Source: Chloroflexota bacterium (GTDB taxonomy: Bacteria; Chloroflexota; UBA11872). Taken from it: a stretch of DNA of 64,000 nt. Shown in pieces: positions 41,958 through 64,000 of the stretch. The notes under the pieces were generated by a model, which had not been told where the DNA came from, searched no databases, and was given only the letters and a program-made list of their open reading frames with translations. Numbering within the stretch: the stretch's first letter is position 1; the number at the start of each line of letters is the position of its first letter. The translations under genes and the position numbers were made by a program. The stretch lies in the NCBI GenBank assembly GCA_022825895.1, contig JAJDVX010000022.1, forward strand, positions 124,001 through 188,000, written 5' to 3'.

Positions 41958-43712
41958 TTAGCTTTGGTTCGTTTCGGGCTTCCAATGCCGCGGCTTCGGC
42001 GTTGCCAGCCACTCCAGCAGGTCGTCCAGCGACAGGGCGTTAATCACGTCCGCCGCGCGCAGCCACGCCCGGCGGGCCGTCAGCACGCCGTAGCGCATGG
42101 AGGCCAGGCTGTCGGGGTGATGGGCGTCGCTGTTGATGGAGATTGGAACGCCTAGTTCAGCGGCGCGTCGCGCCGTCGTGTCGTCGAGGTCCAGGCGCTC
42201 GGGCGCCGCGTTGATCTCCAGCGCCGTGCCGGTGGCGGCCGCGGCCTTCAGCACGGCCTCCACGTCAAACGTATAGCCGTCCCGCAGACCCAACATCCGT
42301 CCGGTTGGGTGCCCGATAATGTCCACGTGCGGGTTCTCGATCGCCGCGATCAGCCGCTCCGTCATCTGCTCTGGCGGCTGGTTGAAATTGCTGTGAATCG
42401 AGGCCACCACCACATCCAGCGAGGCCAGGATCTCTTCGCTGAAGTCCAGGCTGCCGTCGGTCAGGATTTCCACTTCGCTGCCGTGCAGCACGCGCACGTC
42501 CGGCGACGCCTCGCGCTCCCGTGCAATCTCCTCGGTCTGCTCCGCCAGCCGCTCGGGGCTCAGCCCGTTGGCCACCTGCAGGGTGCCCGAGTGATCGGTC
42601 ACCGCAAAGTAGGCCAATCCGCGCCGCCTGGCGGCAGCGACCATCTGGCCGATCGACGCCGCCCCGTCGCTCCACAGCGAGTGCCCGTGCAACTCGCCCT
42701 TGATGTCGCCAAGCTCGATCAGGTCCGGCAGCGCCCCCGCCTCGGCCGCCTCGATCTCGCCCCGGTTCTCCCGCAGCGCCGGGTCGATCCAGGGCAGCCC
42801 AACCGCCGCATAGACATCCTGCTCGGTCGCCGCCGGCTGCCGTTGTCCGGTTTCCGCATCCAGGAACCCGCGTTCGTTCAGCGACAGCCCCCGCTGCAGC
42901 GCCCGCGCCCGGATCTCGATGTTGTGTTCCTTCGACCCCGTGAAATACGCCAGCGCCGCCCCAAACTCGTCCGGCGCCACCACCAGCAGATCCACCTGGA
43001 ACCCGCCGCCCACCAGGACCGCCGTCTTGGTCCCGCCGGTACCCACCACCTCTTCCACATCGTCGGCCGCTACGAAGTGCTCCATTACCGGTCCGGGTTC
43101 GTCGGCGGCCGCCAGGATGTCCAGGTCGCCGATGGTCTCCCGTCCGCGCCGCAGGCTGCCTGCGTACTGCACGGTCTGAACCCCCGGCGCCGCCTCCACA
43201 TGCGCGATCAGCCGCTCCGCGATCGGCAGCACGTCCCCGAGCCGCCGCCGCGTAATCCGCTCTCGGAATCGGCCCAGTTCCCGCAACAGCCGCGCCTGGC
43301 GCTTCGCGCCAATCGTGCGGATACCGGCCAGTTTCCCCGCGCGTGCCGCCGCTTCCAGCGCATCCACGCTGTCGATCCCGTGCTTGTTGTACAGCGTCGC
43401 GGCCGTCTTGGGACCCAGCCCTGGAATCAGCAGCATCTCGAACACGCTGTCCGGAATCTCCGCCCGCATCTCCTCGTACTCGTCCACGCGGCCGTTCGCC
43501 ACGAACTCGCCCAGCACCCCCGCGATGCCCTTGCCTATTCCTCGGACCTTCGAGATTTCGCCGCTCTCCACCAGCTCCGCCACGTCCGTGGTCAGCGAAT
43601 TCACCCGCCGCGCCGCATTCCGAAACGCCCGCACGCGGAACGTATTGGCCCCCCGAATCTCCAGCGCGTCGGCAAAGCCCTCCAGAAGCTCGGCGGCAGC
43701 CTTATTCAGCAT
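41958..43712 (-). CDS. polX: Family X DNA polymerase / PHP-domain protein (PolX)
   Basis: 584 residues from ATG 43712 (GGGAG nine bases upstream); the 883-residue track ORF reads through into upstream DNA. HhH region (IRGIGKGIAGVL, IPGLGPKTAATLY), nucleotidyltransferase GSLRRGRETIGDLDIL with the catalytic Asp pair, and a C-terminal PHP domain (GELHGHSLWSDG, TDHSGTLQVANG, INSDAHHPDS). Gap-filling polymerase with PHP-based 3'-5' exonuclease/AP activity in base excision repair. Confidence 0.95.
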   Translation of the reverse strand: MLNKAAAELLEGFADALEIRGANTFRVRAFRNAARRVNSLTTDVAELVESGEISKVRGIGKGIAGVLGEFVANGRVDEYEEMRAEIPDSVFEMLLIPGLGPKTAATLYNKHGIDSVDALEAAARAGKLAGIRTIGAKRQARLLRELGRFRERITRRRLGDVLPIAERLIAHVEAAPGVQTVQYAGSLRRGRETIGDLDILAAADEPGPVMEHFVAADDVEEVVGTGGTKTAVLVGGGFQVDLLVVAPDEFGAALAYFTGSKEHNIEIRARALQRGLSLNERGFLDAETGQRQPAATEQDVYAAVGLPWIDPALRENRGEIEAAEAGALPDLIELGDIKGELHGHSLWSDGAASIGQMVAAARRRGLAYFAVTDHSGTLQVANGLSPERLAEQTEEIAREREASPDVRVLHGSEVEILTDGSLDFSEEILASLDVVVASIHSNFNQPPEQMTERLIAAIENPHVDIIGHPTGRMLGLRDGYTFDVEAVLKAAAATGTALEINAAPERLDLDDTTARRAAELGVPISINSDAHHPDSLASMRYGVLTARRAWLRAADVINALSLDDLLEWLATPKPRHWKPETNQS

Positions 43713-43848
43713 CGCTTGAGACTCCCAGAGCGTGTGGGCACTCCGCATTGTGTCCCATTCGGCAGGATTGTCTCCTGCAGTCGTCGGAGCCACTCGTCCG
43801 ACCAAGTGCGGAAGTCGTGATGCCTCATCGGCATAGCAGCCTTGCGGC

Positions 43849-43877
43849 CTGACAAAAAACGAACGACCTGCTAGGAT
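43849..43877 (+). promoter_or_regulatory. Sigma-70-like promoter giving a leaderless transcript
   Basis: CTGACA (43849-43854), a 17-bp spacer, then TAGGAT (43872-43877) with extended TGC. The expected start site (about 43883-43885) coincides with the ATG at 43883, so the small zinc-ribbon mRNA would be leaderless; no Shine-Dalgarno is present. Confidence 0.6.
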
Positions 43878-43882
43878 GCCGT

Positions 43883-44092
43883 ATGAATACCGAACGAACG
43901 TTTGCCGTACGGGTGGCGGGATACGCGGGGAGGCCGTCGTCGCCGGTGGCGACGGCGGCGCGTCCGAGGCCACCCTGGCGCGGTGAAGGGCGGGTTCGGG
44001 CGATGCAGGCGTGCCCGGACTGCGGGATCCCGCTGCGGCCGCTGGGTCGCTGCCTGAGCTGTCCGGCCTGCGGCTGGGGGGCGTGCGGCTAG
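43883..44092 (+). CDS. Small zinc-ribbon protein
   Basis: 69 residues. The C-terminal 28 residues have four paired Cys (CPDCG, CLSCPACGW) plus a final Cys, like the zinc-ribbon tail of class II ribonucleotide reductases. The N-terminal 40 residues are Arg/Pro-rich. No larger partner adjoins, so it is either a stand-alone mini-protein or a detached domain. The promoter supports expression. It ends with CTAG shared with the convergent TIM-barrel gene. Confidence 0.6.
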   Translation: MNTERTFAVRVAGYAGRPSSPVATAARPRPPWRGEGRVRAMQACPDCGIPLRPLGRCLSCPACGWGACG

Positions 44093-44973
44093 AGGGGCCG
44101 GTACCAACGGCGCGGCTTGTTGGACTGTCGGCGGACGGGTTTGGGGCCAAGGCGCCGGCGGACGAGGCGAAGGTCGTCGCGTAGCAGGTCGCGCGGGGCG
44201 GGCGACGCCTTTGGGTCGTGGCTCCAGACGGCGCCGGCGTGGTAGGGGCCTTCGAGGATTGCGAAGACATCGAGTTCGCGTTGGGTGACTTCGTGTAGCA
44301 AGTCGGGCCAGTCGGCCATGCCGTCGGTAAGGGAGGCGGGCGTACGCGACCAGCCGTCCGGCCCGGGTTGGATGGCGGTGTTGGAGATGCTGAGGGCCTG
44401 GACGTGGTCGTCCAGCGCGTCGAGGTCCAGGCGCCAGGATTCGGGATTGATGGGGCCAAGCTGGCCGGGCGCGAGGCAGATGCCGACGTAGCCGGGCAGG
44501 CGGCCGTGCAGCAGGGCGCCGGCGTGGCCGGATTGTTCCTGGAGGGATCCGGGGAGCTGGCGGACGAGGGCGCGCAGGTCGTGGCGGCGGCAGAGGGTTT
44601 CCAGCCCACGCAGTCCGGCGCGCGCGGCCTGTAGCGAGTCGAGGTAGGACGCGCCGTCGAGCCGGGACCACGCGCCGTAGCGGATGTAGGGGACGCGGGC
44701 TTCCTGGCAGCCGCGGTGGATGTCTTCGGCGTGGTCGTCGAAGGGGGAGGTCAGGTCGGTGGTGACCATTGCGACGTTGACGCCGGCGTCGGCGCAGTCG
44801 ACGGTGACTTCGATGAGGTCGATGGCCTCGGATGGTTCGACCTGCCCGCCCGCGGCGACGACTAAGTCGATGGCGTCCAGCTCAAGGGCGCGGGCTTCGG
44901 CGACGAGTTCGGTGGGTGAATGCCCCGGAAAGGCGGTGCCGGAGAGTACGTAGCGGGGGAATTTGAGGGCCAC
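44089..44973 (-). CDS. Sugar phosphate isomerase/epimerase-like TIM barrel
   Basis: 294 residues. VLSGTAFPGHSPTELVAEARALELDAIDL start, VTTDLTSPFD, a middle segment GICLAPGQLG, ALSISNTAI and FAILEGPYH with Glu fit the xylose-isomerase-like barrel. One expected metal-site segment is divergent. GTG start without a good Shine-Dalgarno. Confidence 0.78.
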   Translation of the reverse strand: MALKFPRYVLSGTAFPGHSPTELVAEARALELDAIDLVVAAGGQVEPSEAIDLIEVTVDCADAGVNVAMVTTDLTSPFDDHAEDIHRGCQEARVPYIRYGAWSRLDGASYLDSLQAARAGLRGLETLCRRHDLRALVRQLPGSLQEQSGHAGALLHGRLPGYVGICLAPGQLGPINPESWRLDLDALDDHVQALSISNTAIQPGPDGWSRTPASLTDGMADWPDLLHEVTQRELDVFAILEGPYHAGAVWSHDPKASPAPRDLLRDDLRLVRRRLGPKPVRRQSNKPRRWYRPL

Positions 44974-45005
44974 GTGGCGACTCGCGTGCGGGAAGTGACT
45001 TGAGC

Positions 45006-47786
45006 CTACGACCAGTCCGGCAAGGGACGGATGGGCATGTCGAAGACGTAGGCCTGGCGGAAGGGTTGGGGGGAGCTCAGGGCGCCGTCGTGCAGGCGGT
45101 AGTCCATCAGCAGGATCGCGAGGTCGTGGATGAGGCCGCGGGACAGCAGGAGACGCAGGCGGTAGTCGCCGGAGAGCTGGGTGTCGCGGGCGACCTGGGG
45201 CGGACGGGGCTGGCCGTCAGCGGTTTCGGTGAGGGTGCGGGTTGCCGGGTCGTAGCGAAAGTCGATCCGTTGGGCGGGCGCGGTGATGTGGGCGGCGCTT
45301 GACCAGAAGCCGTGGGAGGGGCGGGCGTTGTTGCGCGGGTCTTCGGCGTAGGCCATGCCGACGCTGCCGCCGGTGCCGGTGGGGTTGGCGGTGATGATGG
45401 CGCCGGTAATTGCGCCGTCGCGGGCGCTGACATCGACGGAGATGACGTGGCGGGGGATGTGTTCGGCGGTGAAGGTTTGCGTGGCGCCGGCGGGCACCAG
45501 GCGGGCGGCGACGATCTGGGGGCGGATGGCGTTTCCGCCCGAGCTGACCTGGAGCACTGCCCCGGGAGTGGACGGGACGATAATCCAGGTGAGGCCGGGA
45601 TTGACGGGGATTTCGGCCGGTCCCGCCCGGATCAGGCCGCGAGTCGAGGTGACGACGCCGAAGAGGATGGGCTGCTCGGCCGGTTGCAGATTGGGTCCGG
45701 CGGCCAGCCGCCCGTCACGCAGTCCAATCCGCACGCCGCCGCTGGCTGGGAGGTCCAGGACGCCGAGGGCTTGTCCCAGGTCGTTGGCGGTCAGCCGCTG
45801 TCCGGGCGCGTCGCGGTAGATCGTCCAGTAGGGCGTGATGTAGACCGCGTCGGACTGGAGGAGGCCGTGGGTGCGGGGATCGTCGGCAGTGTTGAGGACG
45901 AGGAAGTCGTAGGCCGGGTTAGCCAGGTTTTCGAAGGGATAGGCGGGGGAACTGGCCAGCCCGGCGAGTTGGCGTCCGACCAATAGCCCGGCCCACACGC
46001 TGGTGGCGCGCCGGGCCCAGGATTCGAATTGATGCCGAGGATAGTGGAAGGCCAGCACGTGGTCGCCGATGCGGCGGCGGGCCTCGGGCACGGGGTAGGT
46101 GAGGGTGGGCGCAAAGTAGACGCGGCTGCCGGGCGGCACCCGGTCGGCGACGGCGCGGGCGTCGTGGGCGATGCGGCGCTCGGCGTTCCAGCCGAGGCCC
46201 TGCCAGTTCCACCAGACGCTGAGGTAGGTGTTGTAGATGAGGGCGAGCGAGAGGATGACCATGATGGCGACGGCGACGCGGCCGAGGACGGGCTCGACGG
46301 GCGCGAAGCGGGCCTCGAGGCGTCGGGTGGCGGTTTCGCTCCAGAGCTTGAACTCGCCGTGGTAGATGTTGGCGATTCCCGAGGCCACCAGCACGGCAAC
46401 CAGAAAGGCCACGTAGGAGAGGTTTTTGAAGTGCCCGTAGTGGTAGCCGGCGCCGGCGGCGACCCAGAGCATGAAACCGGCGAAGCCGGCGGCCAGCGCC
46501 AGGGTCACGCGCTGATCGCCGCGCACCGTGAAGGCGCCCAGCAGGGCCAGGGCCAGCGTTGGCCAGAAGAGGGTGCCGAGGACTGATTGGAGGGCGTTGG
46601 TGCCGCCCGCGCCGAGGAGCAGTTCCAGGGGACCGTCGCGCGGGATGAGGCGGTAGGCCTCCAGCCCGAAGGCGAGTTCCACGTTGGCGAATTGGCGGTC
46701 GCCCCAGGCGTTGCCGAACTGGCCGTTGAGGTCGCCGGCGATGTCGACTAGCTGCGGCAGGGCCCACACGAGGAGCCAGACGATCCCGGGGGCGCCGAGG
46801 ACGGCGGTTCCAGCGCCTAAGGCCAGGGCGCGACGCATGGTGGCGAACCGCGAGCGGGCGGTGACGACAAGCACCGCCACCAGCGTGACCACCACGGCCA
46901 GGTAGACAGCCGAGATTGCCCAGAAGTAGGACACCAGGAGGGCGGCGCTGATCAGCGCGGCCAAGGTCAGTGCCCGCGGGCCGCCGCTCCGCAGGGCCAC
47001 GATGCCCGTCGCGGCCGCCAGCGGGAAAAGGGCGAAGGCGACGGCGTGGGGTCCGAAACCCATGCCGGCGAACCAGAGGGGCAGCCCGTGGAGCGCGTAG
47101 AGCGTGGCGGCCAAGCCGGAGGGGCGTTCGGACATTTGGAGACCAGTTCGGGCAAAGATGTAGACGGCGGGCACGCTGGCGGCGAGGAGCAGGTACAGAA
47201 GCGGGGCGAAGGCGTGGAAGGCGGGGGCGTTGGAAAGGATGGAGCCGATGGACAGCAGGTACGGAAAGCCCCAGCCGCGTGAGTGGTTGCGCAGGCCCTG
47301 GAACTCTTCCTGGAAGGGTCCTTCGGTCAGCCCGTGCATGAAGACGTTGTTCCACTTGAGGGCTTCCGCCAGGGGGACGTAGAGGTCTTCGTCAATGTTG
47401 AGGCCCAACATCGCGCCGGAGCGGCCGTGCAGGTGCGGCAGGAAGGCGGTGGCGAGGAGCAGGGCGCCGGCAACCAGGACGACGGTCTGCGGTTTGGTGG
47501 GCCGCGGCAGCCACCAGCCGTCGCGACGCACGGTCCAGGCGGCCAGCGCGGTTGCGGCGCCGAGCAGGAGCGCGGTTGCGACACGCAGATCGACGACCAG
47601 GTTGAGCGCGTAGGCGCCAACGATCAACACGGCCGCCCCGACCAGGGGGACCGGCAGCAGTCCCGCTACCCGAAGTTCCGGCGGCGCCAGCAGGCGAGTC
47701 AGCCCGTAGCCGGCAACCATGCACGCCGCCGACATGGCCAGGACCACGGTGATGGCTTCCAGGCCGACGGCCAGCAATTCAGGCAT
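45006..47786 (-). CDS. Large polytopic membrane protein, possibly GT-C-type
   Basis: 926 residues. About a dozen membrane helices fill residues 1-530; the C-terminal 350 residues are soluble and beta-rich. An acidic first-loop motif (NIDEDLYVPLAEAL) after the third or fourth helix recalls GT-C glycosyltransferases; that is inference. Like the YYY and Agl23 proteins further right, it probably handles lipid-linked sugars. The stop is followed by the TIM-barrel gene. Confidence 0.6.
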   Translation of the reverse strand: MPELLAVGLEAITVVLAMSAACMVAGYGLTRLLAPPELRVAGLLPVPLVGAAVLIVGAYALNLVVDLRVATALLLGAATALAAWTVRRDGWWLPRPTKPQTVVLVAGALLLATAFLPHLHGRSGAMLGLNIDEDLYVPLAEALKWNNVFMHGLTEGPFQEEFQGLRNHSRGWGFPYLLSIGSILSNAPAFHAFAPLLYLLLAASVPAVYIFARTGLQMSERPSGLAATLYALHGLPLWFAGMGFGPHAVAFALFPLAAATGIVALRSGGPRALTLAALISAALLVSYFWAISAVYLAVVVTLVAVLVVTARSRFATMRRALALGAGTAVLGAPGIVWLLVWALPQLVDIAGDLNGQFGNAWGDRQFANVELAFGLEAYRLIPRDGPLELLLGAGGTNALQSVLGTLFWPTLALALLGAFTVRGDQRVTLALAAGFAGFMLWVAAGAGYHYGHFKNLSYVAFLVAVLVASGIANIYHGEFKLWSETATRRLEARFAPVEPVLGRVAVAIMVILSLALIYNTYLSVWWNWQGLGWNAERRIAHDARAVADRVPPGSRVYFAPTLTYPVPEARRRIGDHVLAFHYPRHQFESWARRATSVWAGLLVGRQLAGLASSPAYPFENLANPAYDFLVLNTADDPRTHGLLQSDAVYITPYWTIYRDAPGQRLTANDLGQALGVLDLPASGGVRIGLRDGRLAAGPNLQPAEQPILFGVVTSTRGLIRAGPAEIPVNPGLTWIIVPSTPGAVLQVSSGGNAIRPQIVAARLVPAGATQTFTAEHIPRHVISVDVSARDGAITGAIITANPTGTGGSVGMAYAEDPRNNARPSHGFWSSAAHITAPAQRIDFRYDPATRTLTETADGQPRPPQVARDTQLSGDYRLRLLLSRGLIHDLAILLMDYRLHDGALSSPQPFRQAYVFDMPIRPLPDWS

Positions 47787-59641: not shown

Positions 59642-60366
59642 ATAGCGGGCCAGACCTGGATGCGGCCGTGGTGGCCGACTTCGGGGACTACCTGGGACGC
59701 GTCGACCTGGGCGCAAAAGGTCACGTCGTCCCAGAGGCCGACGGGCTTGAGCGCCAGGGCGCTGTGGGAGGCGGCGAGGGCTGCCTGGGTGGAGGGGTAG
59801 GCGTTGGTGACGTGGAGGGCGGTGAGGGCTGATTCGTCGAGGTTGAGGTCCGGTGACTTCTGTAGCAGGCGCTGGACGATGACGCCGGCGGTGTAGAGGT
59901 CGTCGAGGGCTAGGGCGCCAGAGCGGCCGGCGCAGGCGATGGTGATGGTTGGGACGTCGGGGTCGCCGAGCAGGCCTTCGGCGACGGCGCCGGCGTTGCG
60001 GAGGGCAGCGATGAAGATGCGGCGGGAGTGGCGCCAGCGTTCGATGGCGTAGGCGCCGTTGGTGGTGGAGAGGACGGCGCAGCGGCCGGTGAGGTCGATC
60101 TCCTGGAACCCGCGGGGGGAGTTGCCGTGGTCGAAGCCCTGGGGCGGGAGGCCGCCCCGTTCGCCGCAGAGGAGGGTGTTGGGGCCGAGTTGGTCTGCGG
60201 CCTGGCGGGCGGAGGCGACGTCGCCCGCGATCCAGACTTCGGGGTCGCCCGCTTCCGCCATGGCGATCAGGGTGGTGGTGGCGCGGATGACGTCGACGAC
60301 GGCGCAGACGCCGCGGGGATCGGGTTCGAGGGTTCCCGGTAGTAGTTCGACGCGGACGAGGGTCAC
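59638..60366 (-). CDS. comB: ComB family 2-phosphosulfolactate phosphatase
   Basis: About 242 residues from GTG 60366, overlapping the MATE gene stop as GTGA. VVDVIRATTT, CGERGGLPP and LSTTNGAYAI are the ComB motifs. Dephosphorylates 2-phosphosulfolactate in coenzyme M or sulfolactate metabolism; in bacteria often of unclear role. Confidence 0.9.
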   Translation of the reverse strand: MTLVRVELLPGTLEPDPRGVCAVVDVIRATTTLIAMAEAGDPEVWIAGDVASARQAADQLGPNTLLCGERGGLPPQGFDHGNSPRGFQEIDLTGRCAVLSTTNGAYAIERWRHSRRIFIAALRNAGAVAEGLLGDPDVPTITIACAGRSGALALDDLYTAGVIVQRLLQKSPDLNLDESALTALHVTNAYPSTQAALAASHSALALKPVGLWDDVTFCAQVDASQVVPEVGHHGRIQVWPAI

Positions 60367-61727
60367 AGGCGAATGGTCTTCCAGCGGCCGGAGGTGAAGC
60401 GGACGAGGGAGGCGATGGCGATGGTGACGTAGTTGACGCCGGCGCCGATCCACATGCCGGTGAGGCCGAAGCCGAGGACGAGGCCCAGGCCGAGGGCCAG
60501 GGGGACGCGGATGATCCAGAGGGCCAGCAGGGAGATCAGGAGCATGGCGCGGGTGTCGCCGGCGCCGCGGAGGGCGCCGGGCATGGTGGTGGCGACGCCC
60601 ACGAGCGGCATGAAGAGGGCGACGGTGCGCACGGGGAGTTCAGCGGCGTCGAGCACGGCGGGGTCGGTGGTGAAGGTGGATAGGAGGGCGCGCGGAAAGA
60701 GGAACATGAGCACGCCGACGGCGGTGGACACCAGGGTGGCGCCGATGGCGGCCTCGCGGCCATAGCGGTAGGCCAGTTGCGGATCGCGGGCGCCGAGGCT
60801 CTGGCCGACGGCGGTGGAGGCGGCGATGCCGAGGCCCAGTGACGGCATGTAGGCGAGCGAAATGATGGGGCCGACGACGTTCTGGGCGGCGAAGGAGACG
60901 GTGCCCAACTGCAGCCCGATGATGCTGAAGGCCATGATGCCGCCGACGGAGATGAACATCTCGCCGACGGCGGGGCCGGAGACCTTCATCAGGCGGCGTT
61001 GCATGATCCAGTCGGGGCGGTAGGAACCGAATGCCCCGGCGCGGTGGCGTGAGCGGTAGATGGTTGCGAGCATGAACACGGCGGTGGCCAGGCGCGCGAC
61101 GCCCATGGCCACGGCGATGCCGAGCAGGCCGAAGCCGGCGTTCACCAGGAGCAGGCCGATCACCAGGTCGACGGCGGCCATGAGCACGGAGCCGAGCATG
61201 GGGGTGCGGGTGTCGCCGACGCCGCGCTGGACGGCGCCGACCATGACCACCACGGTCTGCAAGGGGGCGCTGAGGGCGCTGATGGCCAGGTATGGGGCGG
61301 CCATGGCGACGATGTCCTCGGAGCCGCCGACCAGGCGCAGGATCGGGTCGGCCAGGAAGACCAGGACGAAGACGGAGATGAAGGAGGCGGCGACGGCGGT
61401 GAGCATGCCCTGGCGGCCGGCGGTGTGGGCGGTGTCGAGGTCGCGGGCGCCGTAGGAGCGGGCGACGAGGGCGAGGGCGCCGATGCTCATGCCGAAGAAC
61501 AGCGAGAAGGTGAAGAACATGAGGAAGTTGGAGATGCCGGCGGCGGCCAGGGCCTCGGCGCCGAGGCGGCCGGCGAGCGCCGTGTTGATCATGAACAGGG
61601 CGCTCTGCATCAGGTTTTCGAGCATGGCGGGCCAGCCGAGGGTGAAGAGGCGGCGGCGGATCTGGGGGAGGGTCAACTCGGGCTGGCCCCTGACGGGGGA
61701 CGATGCGACCGCGCGTGCGGACGGCAA
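60363..61727 (-). CDS. MATE family efflux transporter
   Basis: About 454 residues from TTG 61727, supported by GGGAG seven bases upstream; the 673-residue track ORF reads into non-coding DNA. Twelve helices in two related halves: LGWPAMLENLMQSALFMINTALAGRLG and SGPAVGEMFISVGGIMAFSIIG, with AAQNVVGPIISLAYMPSLGLGIA. Cation-coupled exporter. Confidence 0.9.
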   Translation of the reverse strand: MPSARAVASSPVRGQPELTLPQIRRRLFTLGWPAMLENLMQSALFMINTALAGRLGAEALAAAGISNFLMFFTFSLFFGMSIGALALVARSYGARDLDTAHTAGRQGMLTAVAASFISVFVLVFLADPILRLVGGSEDIVAMAAPYLAISALSAPLQTVVVMVGAVQRGVGDTRTPMLGSVLMAAVDLVIGLLLVNAGFGLLGIAVAMGVARLATAVFMLATIYRSRHRAGAFGSYRPDWIMQRRLMKVSGPAVGEMFISVGGIMAFSIIGLQLGTVSFAAQNVVGPIISLAYMPSLGLGIAASTAVGQSLGARDPQLAYRYGREAAIGATLVSTAVGVLMFLFPRALLSTFTTDPAVLDAAELPVRTVALFMPLVGVATTMPGALRGAGDTRAMLLISLLALWIIRVPLALGLGLVLGFGLTGMWIGAGVNYVTIAIASLVRFTSGRWKTIRL

Positions 61728-61824
61728 CCGGCTGCTCCCGTGCTTTGAGGTGGTGAAGGCGACCCATGCGGATTCTACGGCGGGGTGAGGAATGGGGCGG
61801 GGAAATGGGGGGCTCGCGCGCAAT

Positions 61825-61848
61825 AAGAGTTTCTTCCAAGAAACTCTT
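61825..61848. repeat. 24-nt inverted repeat upstream of MATE gene
   Basis: Arms AAGAGTTTCTT and AAGAAACTCTT are perfectly complementary around CC. AT-rich in a G-rich region; possible operator or hairpin in the MATE upstream region. Confidence 0.55.
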
Positions 61849-61983
61849 GAGGCGGCGCGGGGTGTGTTGGGGAAGGAGCGAGGGGGGAGTCGGAGGTTGG
61901 GAGCAGTTGGTCTGGTTGGGTGGCCAGGGGTGTGGTTCGACAGGCTCACCAGGGACGCCAGGTGAGGTTTGGTGGGTGGTTGC

Positions 61984-62398
61984 TGCTGGGTCCCCGCCCC
62001 GGATCGCGTCCCCTGGATCATGTCCAGGGCAGGCAGGGGCAGGCTCTCCGCGGGGATGACGGATTGGTTGCTGCTGCTTTGGCGAGGGTACGCGCGGCGG
62101 GCAGGGGGAGGGGGCGGGGCCGCGGGCGGGCGGCTGGCGGCGGACTTTGGTTTGGGGGTGAAGGGGGGAACTGTCTCCGGCTGGCCGGAGACAGTTTGGG
62201 CGGATTTTTTTGGCGGGTGGGGGTGTTGGAGAAGGGGAGAGGGTAGAGGGCAGAGGAGTGAGTGGGGGGAAAGGAGGTTGGGAGCATTTGGTCTGGCTGG
62301 GTTGCCAGGGGTGGCCTGGGTGCGCCGGGATTGCGCATGGTGCTGGGTCCCCGCCCCGGATCGCGTCCGGGGCAGGCTCTGCACGGGGATGACGGGTG
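61984..62398 (+). repeat. Dispersed repeat B, two copies
   Basis: GCTGGGTCCCCGCCCCGGAT starts both copies (about 61984-62064 and 62342-62398); both end CGGGGATGACGG. Copy 2 forms a GCCCCGGA/TCCGGGGC hairpin; copy 1 is interrupted by a smaller CCCTGGA/TCCAGGG hairpin. Related to 19871-19889. Confidence 0.75.
62169..62196. repeat. 28-nt hairpin, 13-bp arms
   Basis: AACTGTCTCCGGC and GCCGGAGACAGTT around TG, followed 8 bp later by a run of seven Ts on the plus strand. Could act as a terminator for plus-strand transcription or belong to a dispersed family. Confidence 0.65.
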
Positions 62399-62721
62399 GA
62401 GGAAGGGGCGAGGGCGGAAGGGGAAGGCGAGGAGTGAGCGTAGAGAAGTGAGAAGCGAGAGGCGGAAGGGACGGGAAGGAGAGAGCTGAGAGCAGTGAGA
62501 GGGGCAGGAAGGGGCGAGGGCAGGGACGTGAGATCGGAAGGGGACGGGCAGCGATGGGGAGAGGTTCAGGACGACGGCGAGCAGGGTGGCGAGGGGTGGG
62601 GGGAGCGGGAACGGGGCGGCGGCGAGGGGCATTGGGGGTGGGGCGGTATGTCTTACTCAGATAGAGTACGGCGTGGTACCGTGGAAGTCAAGGGCATGCG
62701 TGGGGACGGGTGGTGGGGGCT

Positions 62722-62782
62722 GGTGATGGGTGGTGGTGATGGGTGGCGGTGATGGGTGGTGGTGATGCGTGGTGGTGATGGT
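62722..62782 (+). repeat. 13-bp tandem repeat array, about 4.6 copies
   Basis: Unit GGTGATGGGTGGT in four full copies with single-base changes and a partial fifth. Likely length-variable. Confidence 0.85.
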
Positions 62783-63076
62783 TCGACTCGGTCCTTCGTG
62801 GAGTCCGGCCCGGCTGACCACGAACGGTTGAGGGCGGAGGTTGGGAGCAGTTGGTCTGGCTGGCTTGGCGGGGGATTGAGAGGCATCGAGCGCCTGGGGT
62901 GCTGGAAGCCAGGGGGCCTGGGGAAGGAGTGAGCTGAGAGTAGTGAGAAGTGAGAGACGAGGGGGACATGGGGAAGCGATCGGAGCCGGCGTCGCACGAC
63001 TTGGGGTGGGGGCGGCTGAGAGGGCGGGGGCTTGGGGAAGGAGTGAGCTGAGAGCACCTGTGTTGGGTGTCAAGGG

Positions 63077-64000
<924 letters not shown>

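What the first reader, a model, noticed from the sequence alone, without database searches (positions are those of the whole stretch)
61728..63076. 1.35-kb G-rich, repeat-laden gene-free region by IS110
It combines a polypurine stretch, a 13-bp tandem array, perfect hairpins with 11- and 13-bp arms, dispersed repeats and a 22-bp exact pair. Such density is unlike the rest of this compact window. It may be a structured RNA locus, a repeat sink, or the non-coding end of an IS element.
Basis: seen in the sequence. Interest (0 to 1): 0.55.

Follow-up and report, generated by a model that had tools for sequence, protein, structure and literature searches.

The report
Strand-polarised repeat mosaic beside IS110
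This gene-free stretch of a Chloroflexota chromosome is a patchwork of short genus-specific repeats that also fill many other intergenic gaps, always facing the way set by the local G-over-C strand bias, and one of the repeats is where copies of an RNA-guided jumping gene tend to land.

Summary
27% of 61728-63076 lies in internally repeated 12-mers (rest of window 1.2%, shuffles 2.1%); GC skew is +0.49. It codes for nothing recognisable and matches no Rfam family.

It is a mosaic of at least seven dispersed modules (A-G) that recur across the genome (88 matches) and strongly in 10 of 12 examined congeners, plus a local 13-bp tandem array. Blocks differ between close relatives; distant relatives lack the mosaic upstream of the same gene. 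The last 22 bp are the right end of an IS110 element (63055 onward) that abuts module B. A sister copy (C17) has bridge-RNA guides matching its own target, and two relatives hold its empty site.

Unexpectedly, all module families are strand-polarised. In 73 clusters from three species none is mixed and 71 match the sign of the surrounding genes' third-codon GC skew. That skew is highest next to the clusters and alternates in domains tens of kilobases wide. G002, a nearly module-free single-contig congener, has weak skew.

Best reading: a REP-like repeat sink, remodelled by short-homology copying and loss inside a strand-asymmetric domain. The repeat kind is known; polarity and alternating domains are the new part. 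The mechanism is inferred.

The parts
60363..61766 (-). MATE-family gene; left neighbour of the mosaic (start codon uncertain; conserved similarity to relatives begins about here)
   Evidence: PF01554, E 7.6e-57; orthologues in 8 named MAGs
61805..61868 (+). Module A: 24-bp perfect palindrome (61825-61848) with conserved GC-rich flanks; left boundary of the mosaic
   Evidence: 14 copies in this genome, 6-28 in 11 genus members, 0 in other genera and in the reversed control; alignment of 35 copies
61883..61932 (+). Module C, copy 1
61981..62062 (+). Module D, copy 1, in two pieces with an insert between
62140..62213 (+). Module F: perfect 13-bp hairpin (62169-62196), T-run 8-15 nt after it
   Evidence: no site passes the terminator scan
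62225..62262 (+). Purine-rich B-type module, copy 1
   Evidence: block 62222-62409 absent from the orthologous site of G001
62264..62313 (+). Module C, copy 2
62308..62395 (+). Module D, copy 2 (CCCCGGA/TCCGGGG hairpin)
62430..62502 (+). Module B-type purine-rich repeats (47-bp period, 2 copies)
62575..62694 (+). Module G
   Evidence: collinear in G001 and G005, which diverge after 62694
62709..62781 (+). 13-bp tandem array, mostly local to this site
62779..62832 (+). Module E (GGTTCGAC...CACGAACGG)
   Evidence: related core TTCGACNRGCTCANNNCGAACGG is widespread in the class
62835..62874 (+). Module C, copy 3
62910..62966 (+). Module B, copy 3
   Evidence: most frequent module: 56 of 56 copies polarity-concordant
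63026..63054 (+). Module B, copy 4; directly flanks the IS110 end
63055..64000 (-). IS110 element from its right end; continues past the window to the contig end
   Evidence: eight element ends agree up to CAACACAGGTG, then diverge
63077..64000 (-). IS110 transposase gene (DEDD and Transposase_20 domains), interrupted by an in-frame TGA at 63398-63400
   Evidence: PF01548 and PF02371; ORFs split there; sister copies open over 331-333 aa

Best explanation
61790-63054 is an intergenic mosaic of genus-specific, REP-like repeat modules that accumulated upstream of a MATE gene in one clade of the genus and then received an IS110 element. SHOWN: the modules are dispersed through the genome; they are gained or lost in blocks between relatives; all modules of a cluster point the same way, which is the local G/T-rich strand of the chromosome; other copies of this IS110 family are mostly flanked by module B or similar pyrimidine-rich sequence, and two complete copies carry bridge-RNA guides that match their own targets. 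INFERRED: copies arise and disappear by short-homology slippage or template switching, or by exchange anchored in existing modules; both keep copies in one orientation, the first because one strand of the domain is single-stranded more often. INFERRED: the mosaic has no coding or dedicated RNA function; module A may bind a protein, F may form a hairpin, and B acts as the IS110 landing site.
For: 88 dispersed matches in the genome, often clustered; strong matches in 10 of 12 congeners; block differences at this site in G001 and G005 with short homology at the joints, one of them a 15-bp direct repeat; no mosaic at the same site in L073, L075, L077; 73 clusters in 3 species, 0 mixed, 71 concordant with coding GC3 skew, p 6e-19, for A 23/23, B 56/56, C 31/33, D 23/25, E 48/49, F 11/12, G 5/5; skew peak around clusters; orthologous clusters share position and orientation; IS110 ends, guides, empty sites.
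Against: No insertion or deletion of a single module with clean ends was traced, so the copying route is not shown. Clusters are not independent: many are orthologous between species. Module A is conserved almost letter for letter at 6-28 sites per genome, more than expected of idle filler. Coding status rests on my own gene caller and Pfam. MATE orthologues without the mosaic also have some skew, so the mosaic does not cause the skew. Targeting by the window's own IS110 copy is inferred, since its guide loop lies beyond the contig end.
Confidence: 0.62

Rival explanations
1. The modules are transposase-moved elements (MITE or REP type), for instance moved by a Y1/REP transposase acting on single-stranded lagging-strand template, which would give both dispersal and strand orientation.
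For: Dispersed, palindromic, intergenic, many copies; the E core forms inverted pairs in the sister genus, as REPs do.
Against: No Y1 transposase in this 94%-complete genome; modules occur at conserved sites in several species; no target duplication or common element end was seen, and module order varies.
Confidence: 0.15
2. The clusters have a chromosomal function, with module A as the binding site of a nucleoid, segregation or replication protein and the orientation selected for it.
For: A is a near-invariant 24-bp palindrome, absent from other genera and from a reversed control, next to functionally unrelated genes, uniformly oriented, at shared sites in different species.
Against: Absent from congeners G002 and G003, so dispensable in the genus; other modules vary in presence and order; no protein partner identified.
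Confidence: 0.15
3. The region is a structured RNA locus.
For: Two strong hairpins, A (z -2.9 and -5.5 on the two strands) and F (z -3.3); a symmetric double change in the A stem, T-A to C-G.
Against: No Rfam match to E = 1; no promoter- or terminator-like site by the scan; B, E and the + strand of D do not fold better than shuffles; module order and content change between relatives; the A core is conserved as sequence, with almost no other covariation.
Confidence: 0.05
4. The region is the non-coding end of the IS110 element.
For: It directly abuts the element.
Against: Eight copies share sequence only up to CAACACAGGTG; the complete C17 element is 1,170 bp with its non-coding part upstream of the transposase; the C17 empty site is intact in two relatives.
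Confidence: 0.02

Closest known systems
REP / BIME intergenic palindromic repeats (Tobes and Pareja 2006, PMC1525189)
   Same: Short, partly palindromic, extragenic, many copies per genome, clustered, lineage-specific, used as IS110 targets.
   Different: Several unrelated modules mixed in mosaics with non-palindromic purine-rich repeats; uniform orientation following local strand bias; no REP transposase found.
IS621 and other IS110 elements targeting REPs (Durrant et al. 2024, PMC11208160; PMC11187229)
   Same: DEDD plus Transposase_20 recombinase, non-coding region upstream of it folding into a 5' stem and two loops, guides matching left and right target, no long target duplication, repeat family as landing site.
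   Different: The inferred core is TG instead of CT; the target is a pyrimidine-rich strand of a non-palindromic repeat; guides vary between copies together with their targets.
Replication-linked strand composition bias of bacterial chromosomes (SkewDB, PMC8941118)
   Same: Excess of G over C and of T over A on one strand in genes of both directions.
   Different: About 0.5 at third codon positions at the peaks (SkewDB gives about 2.5% as the typical GC skew) and alternating every 50-100 kb in the stretch examined.

Membership tests
REP/BIME elements | Repetitive units of 21-65 bases in extragenic space | tested here: met
   A core 24 bp, E about 50 bp, many copies; intergenic here. Genome-wide, 45 of 128 hit midpoints fell in mechanically called genes, with over-extended starts as one visible cause.
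REP/BIME elements | Palindromic structure | tested here: inconclusive
   A and F perfect, D partly; B and C not.
REP/BIME elements | Associated REP (Y1) transposase, where present | tested here: not met
   No PF01797 match in the genome; the control genomes rang. Not all REPs have one.
MITE (transposase-mobilised) | Constant terminal inverted repeats with target duplications | tested here: not met
   No constant ends; block boundaries differ between relatives.
IS110 family, IS110 group | DEDD and Transposase_20 domains | tested here: met
   PF01548 and PF02371; the window copy carries a nonsense codon.
IS110 family, IS110 group | Bridge-RNA region upstream of the transposase with guides matching the target | tested here: met
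   Met for copies C17 and C4; the window copy's guide loop is not assembled.
IS110 family, IS110 group | Clean empty site in relatives | tested here: met
   C17 site uninterrupted in G001 (95%) and G004 (93%) over 600 bp.
Structured RNA family | Match to a described RNA family | tested here: not met
   No match to E = 1.
Structured RNA family | Expressed transcript | not testable with these tools
   No RNA data available.

The most novel reading that the evidence does not exclude
In one clade of this Chloroflexota genus the chromosome is divided into alternating strand-asymmetry domains tens of kilobases wide, with upward skew jumps sharper than downward ones, as expected of chromosomes with many initiation sites or of locally fixed strand exposure. 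Intergenic repeats spread only in the orientation of the exposed strand, so the mosaics record a local, strand-specific replication or repair process that I do not know to be described for bacteria.
Probability: 0.2. Interest if true: 0.85.

Novelty: new variant of a known kind. Interest (0 to 1): 0.55.

Why it matters
Intergenic repeats of this kind are usually treated as unoriented filler. Here several unrelated families are oriented by a local strand bias, so they can be read as a marker of which strand is exposed where. If the alternating domains are confirmed in closed genomes, they would challenge the expectation of a single skew switch at origin and terminus in a bacterium that has DnaA, and would make the cause of strand asymmetry testable. 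The same repeats are landing sites of a bridge-RNA IS110 group with several natural guide-target pairs.

Tried and rejected
Y1/REP transposase as driver: none found. DnaA loss as cause of unusual skew: dnaA is present in every genome of the genus examined. Two-replichore explanation: does not fit alternating signs in one contig, although a weak flip is seen near dnaA in G004. Replication-independent decay of skew away from clusters as a cluster-made effect: weakened when strong domains without detected modules appeared. Long intergenic gaps as the cause of skew: gap length and flanking |skew| are uncorrelated. Mosaic as the cause of MATE skew: orthologues without it also show 0.18-0.38. DnaA boxes at upward skew steps: none found. 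Module A as operator of a regulon: neighbouring genes are functionally unrelated. Literature search for repeats of such bacteria found nothing relevant. One family scan and one paper search failed on input errors.

Full report
WHAT IS THERE. In 61728-63076, 27% of bases lie in internally repeated 12-mers, against 1.2% on average and 12.4% at most elsewhere in the window and at most 7.4% in 200 dinucleotide shuffles. The + strand has 675 G and 231 C. The left neighbour is a MATE gene and the right neighbour an IS110 transposase gene. None of five ORFs tested within it has a Pfam match and no Rfam family matches to E = 1.

WHAT IT IS MADE OF. A search of the genome (3.54 Mb in 44 contigs; the window is contig C11:124001-188000) gives 88 matches. 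They resolve into modules: A, a 24-bp perfect palindrome with conserved flanks; B, purine-rich GAGTGAG-type repeats; C, GGAGGTTGGGAGCAGTTGGTCTGG; D, a CCCCGGA/TCCGGGG hairpin with GGGATGACGG; E, GGTTCGAC...CGAACGG; F, a 13-bp perfect hairpin; G, containing CTTACTCAGATAGAGTAC. The 13-bp array has only weak partial matches elsewhere. The order B-C-D recurs in other clusters.

DISTRIBUTION. Of 12 other genomes of the genus, 10 have 9-31 strong matches, G002 has one weaker match and G003 none. Sister-genus genomes have weaker matches, one genome of another family has three, and the rest have none. The palindrome of A occurs 6-28 times in 11 genus members including this one and never in G002, G003 or any other genus searched, with a zero control. 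The E core is more widespread: tens of copies, partly as inverted pairs about 31 bp apart, in the sister genus and in another family of the class. Named relatives found through the MATE gene are Chloroflexi/Chloroflexota metagenome bins; their titles do not state a host.

TURNOVER AT THIS SITE. In G001 (93.6% identical over the aligned stretch) the site is the same but lacks 62222-62409. G005 has that block but lacks about 90 bp between two GGAAGGGGCGAGGGC repeats. Both relatives continue differently after 62694. In more distant relatives (L073, L075, L077) conservation stops at 61740-61785 and no mosaic follows; L071 keeps only a degenerate module A. The mosaic is therefore an accumulation within one clade that changes by blocks.

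THE IS110 END. Eight element ends in the genome agree up to CAACACAGGTG and then diverge, which places the boundary at 63055. So 63055-63076 belongs to the IS. Five of the eight right flanks are clear module-B sequence (window, C4:1550, C7, C8, C40); C17 and C26 are similar pyrimidine-rich sequence; C4:5773 is not. The complete C17 copy is 1,170 bp, with a 203-bp non-coding region upstream of the transposase that folds into a 5' stem and two large loops. Its target loop reads ATCACTCCTTGG...GTAAGTGAGCA and its flanks are TCACTCCTTG and CTCACTT. The C4:5773 copy has another target (GACCCCTTG / CTCACCGA) and correspondingly other guides (TTGACCCCTGGG / GTCGGTGAGCGA). G001 and G004 hold the uninterrupted C17 site at 95% and 93% identity over 600 bp. 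This fits the bridge-RNA scheme, in which the left guide pairs with the bottom strand and the right guide with the top strand (PMC11208160). IS110 elements sitting in REPs are known (PMC1525189). The window's transposase frame is interrupted by a TGA, and its guide loop lies beyond the assembled contig, so targeting is inferred for this copy.

POLARITY. Within every cluster all modules point the same way. I compared that direction with the third-codon GC skew of surrounding genes, corrected for gene direction. In 73 clusters from this genome, G010 and G004, none is mixed and 71 agree; the two exceptions have skew near zero. Gene direction does not explain it: 112 nearby genes run against the module strand and 74 with it. 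In this genome the skew is about +0.4 in co-directional and +0.6 in opposing genes within 1 kb of modules and falls on both sides to about +0.05 and +0.1-0.16 by 10-20 kb. G010 and G004 behave alike. T exceeds A on the same strand near modules. Orthologous clusters keep position and orientation between species, so the 73 clusters are not 73 independent events. Gene skews correlate between module-bearing species (r 0.92-0.99) but not with G002 (r -0.38, only 9 genes).

DOMAINS. A 400-kb contiguous stretch of G010 shows alternating domains reaching 0.4-0.5 in either sign, tens of kilobases wide, changing sign every 50-100 kb. A 400-kb stretch of G004 with few modules shows weaker alternation, and all five module hits there agree in sign. 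Upward steps are sharper than downward ones: none of 500 surrogates reaches the observed value in G010, p 0.02 in G004, p 0.07 in this window. Strong domains without detected modules exist, so the modules more likely follow the domains than make them. G002, sampled at 20 places along one contig, has weak skew. DnaA is present in all genus members examined. Limits: my own gene caller, draft assemblies for all module-bearing genomes, and two 400-kb stretches. Many old inversions of a strongly skewed chromosome are not excluded, since an inversion carries its modules along; that model predicts equally sharp up and down steps, which these data do not favour.

INTERPRETATION. Best supported is a repeat sink of REP-like modules, remodelled by short-homology copying and loss in a strand-asymmetric domain, with an IS110 landed beside one module. 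Shown: composition, dispersal, turnover, polarity, IS boundary, and guide-target match in sister copies. Inferred: the copying route, the lack of function, and the cause of the strand bias.

Noticed in passing
L185-L204 (G010:C28:1-400000) and L211-L230 (G004:C16:1-400000): Coding third-position GC skew alternates in domains tens of kilobases wide, with sharper upward than downward steps; unexpected for a bacterium with DnaA.
   Followed up: partly
window 61825-61848 and 35 aligned copies (alignment A1): Near-invariant 24-bp palindrome, mostly just upstream of an oppositely oriented gene and at the gene-side edge of mosaics; neighbouring genes are unrelated (ClpC-like, valyl-tRNA synthetase, sulfatase, aldehyde dehydrogenase and others). 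Binding protein unknown.
   Followed up: partly
window 44609-45006: Abrupt upward skew step between a PHP/DNA polymerase X-like gene (41958-44609) and a 926-aa protein without Pfam match (45006-47786).
   Followed up: partly
window 63398-63400: In-frame TGA splits the IS110 transposase of this copy; sister copies C17 and C26 are open over 333 aa.
   Followed up: no
L079, L104, L242-L257 (IS110 copies in this genome and congeners): IS110 guide loops vary between copies, and several left guides resemble their own left flanks (for example TCTCCCCTTG in G009), giving natural guide-target pairs.
   Followed up: partly
L051:2311-2394 (end of G005:C32): The contig ends in a long inverted copy of its own sequence, probably an assembly artefact at the repeat mosaic.
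   Followed up: no
G000, G004 and G010 contig ends: Many contigs break inside or just beyond these mosaics or in the IS110 non-coding region, so the repeats limit assembly of these genomes.
   Followed up: no
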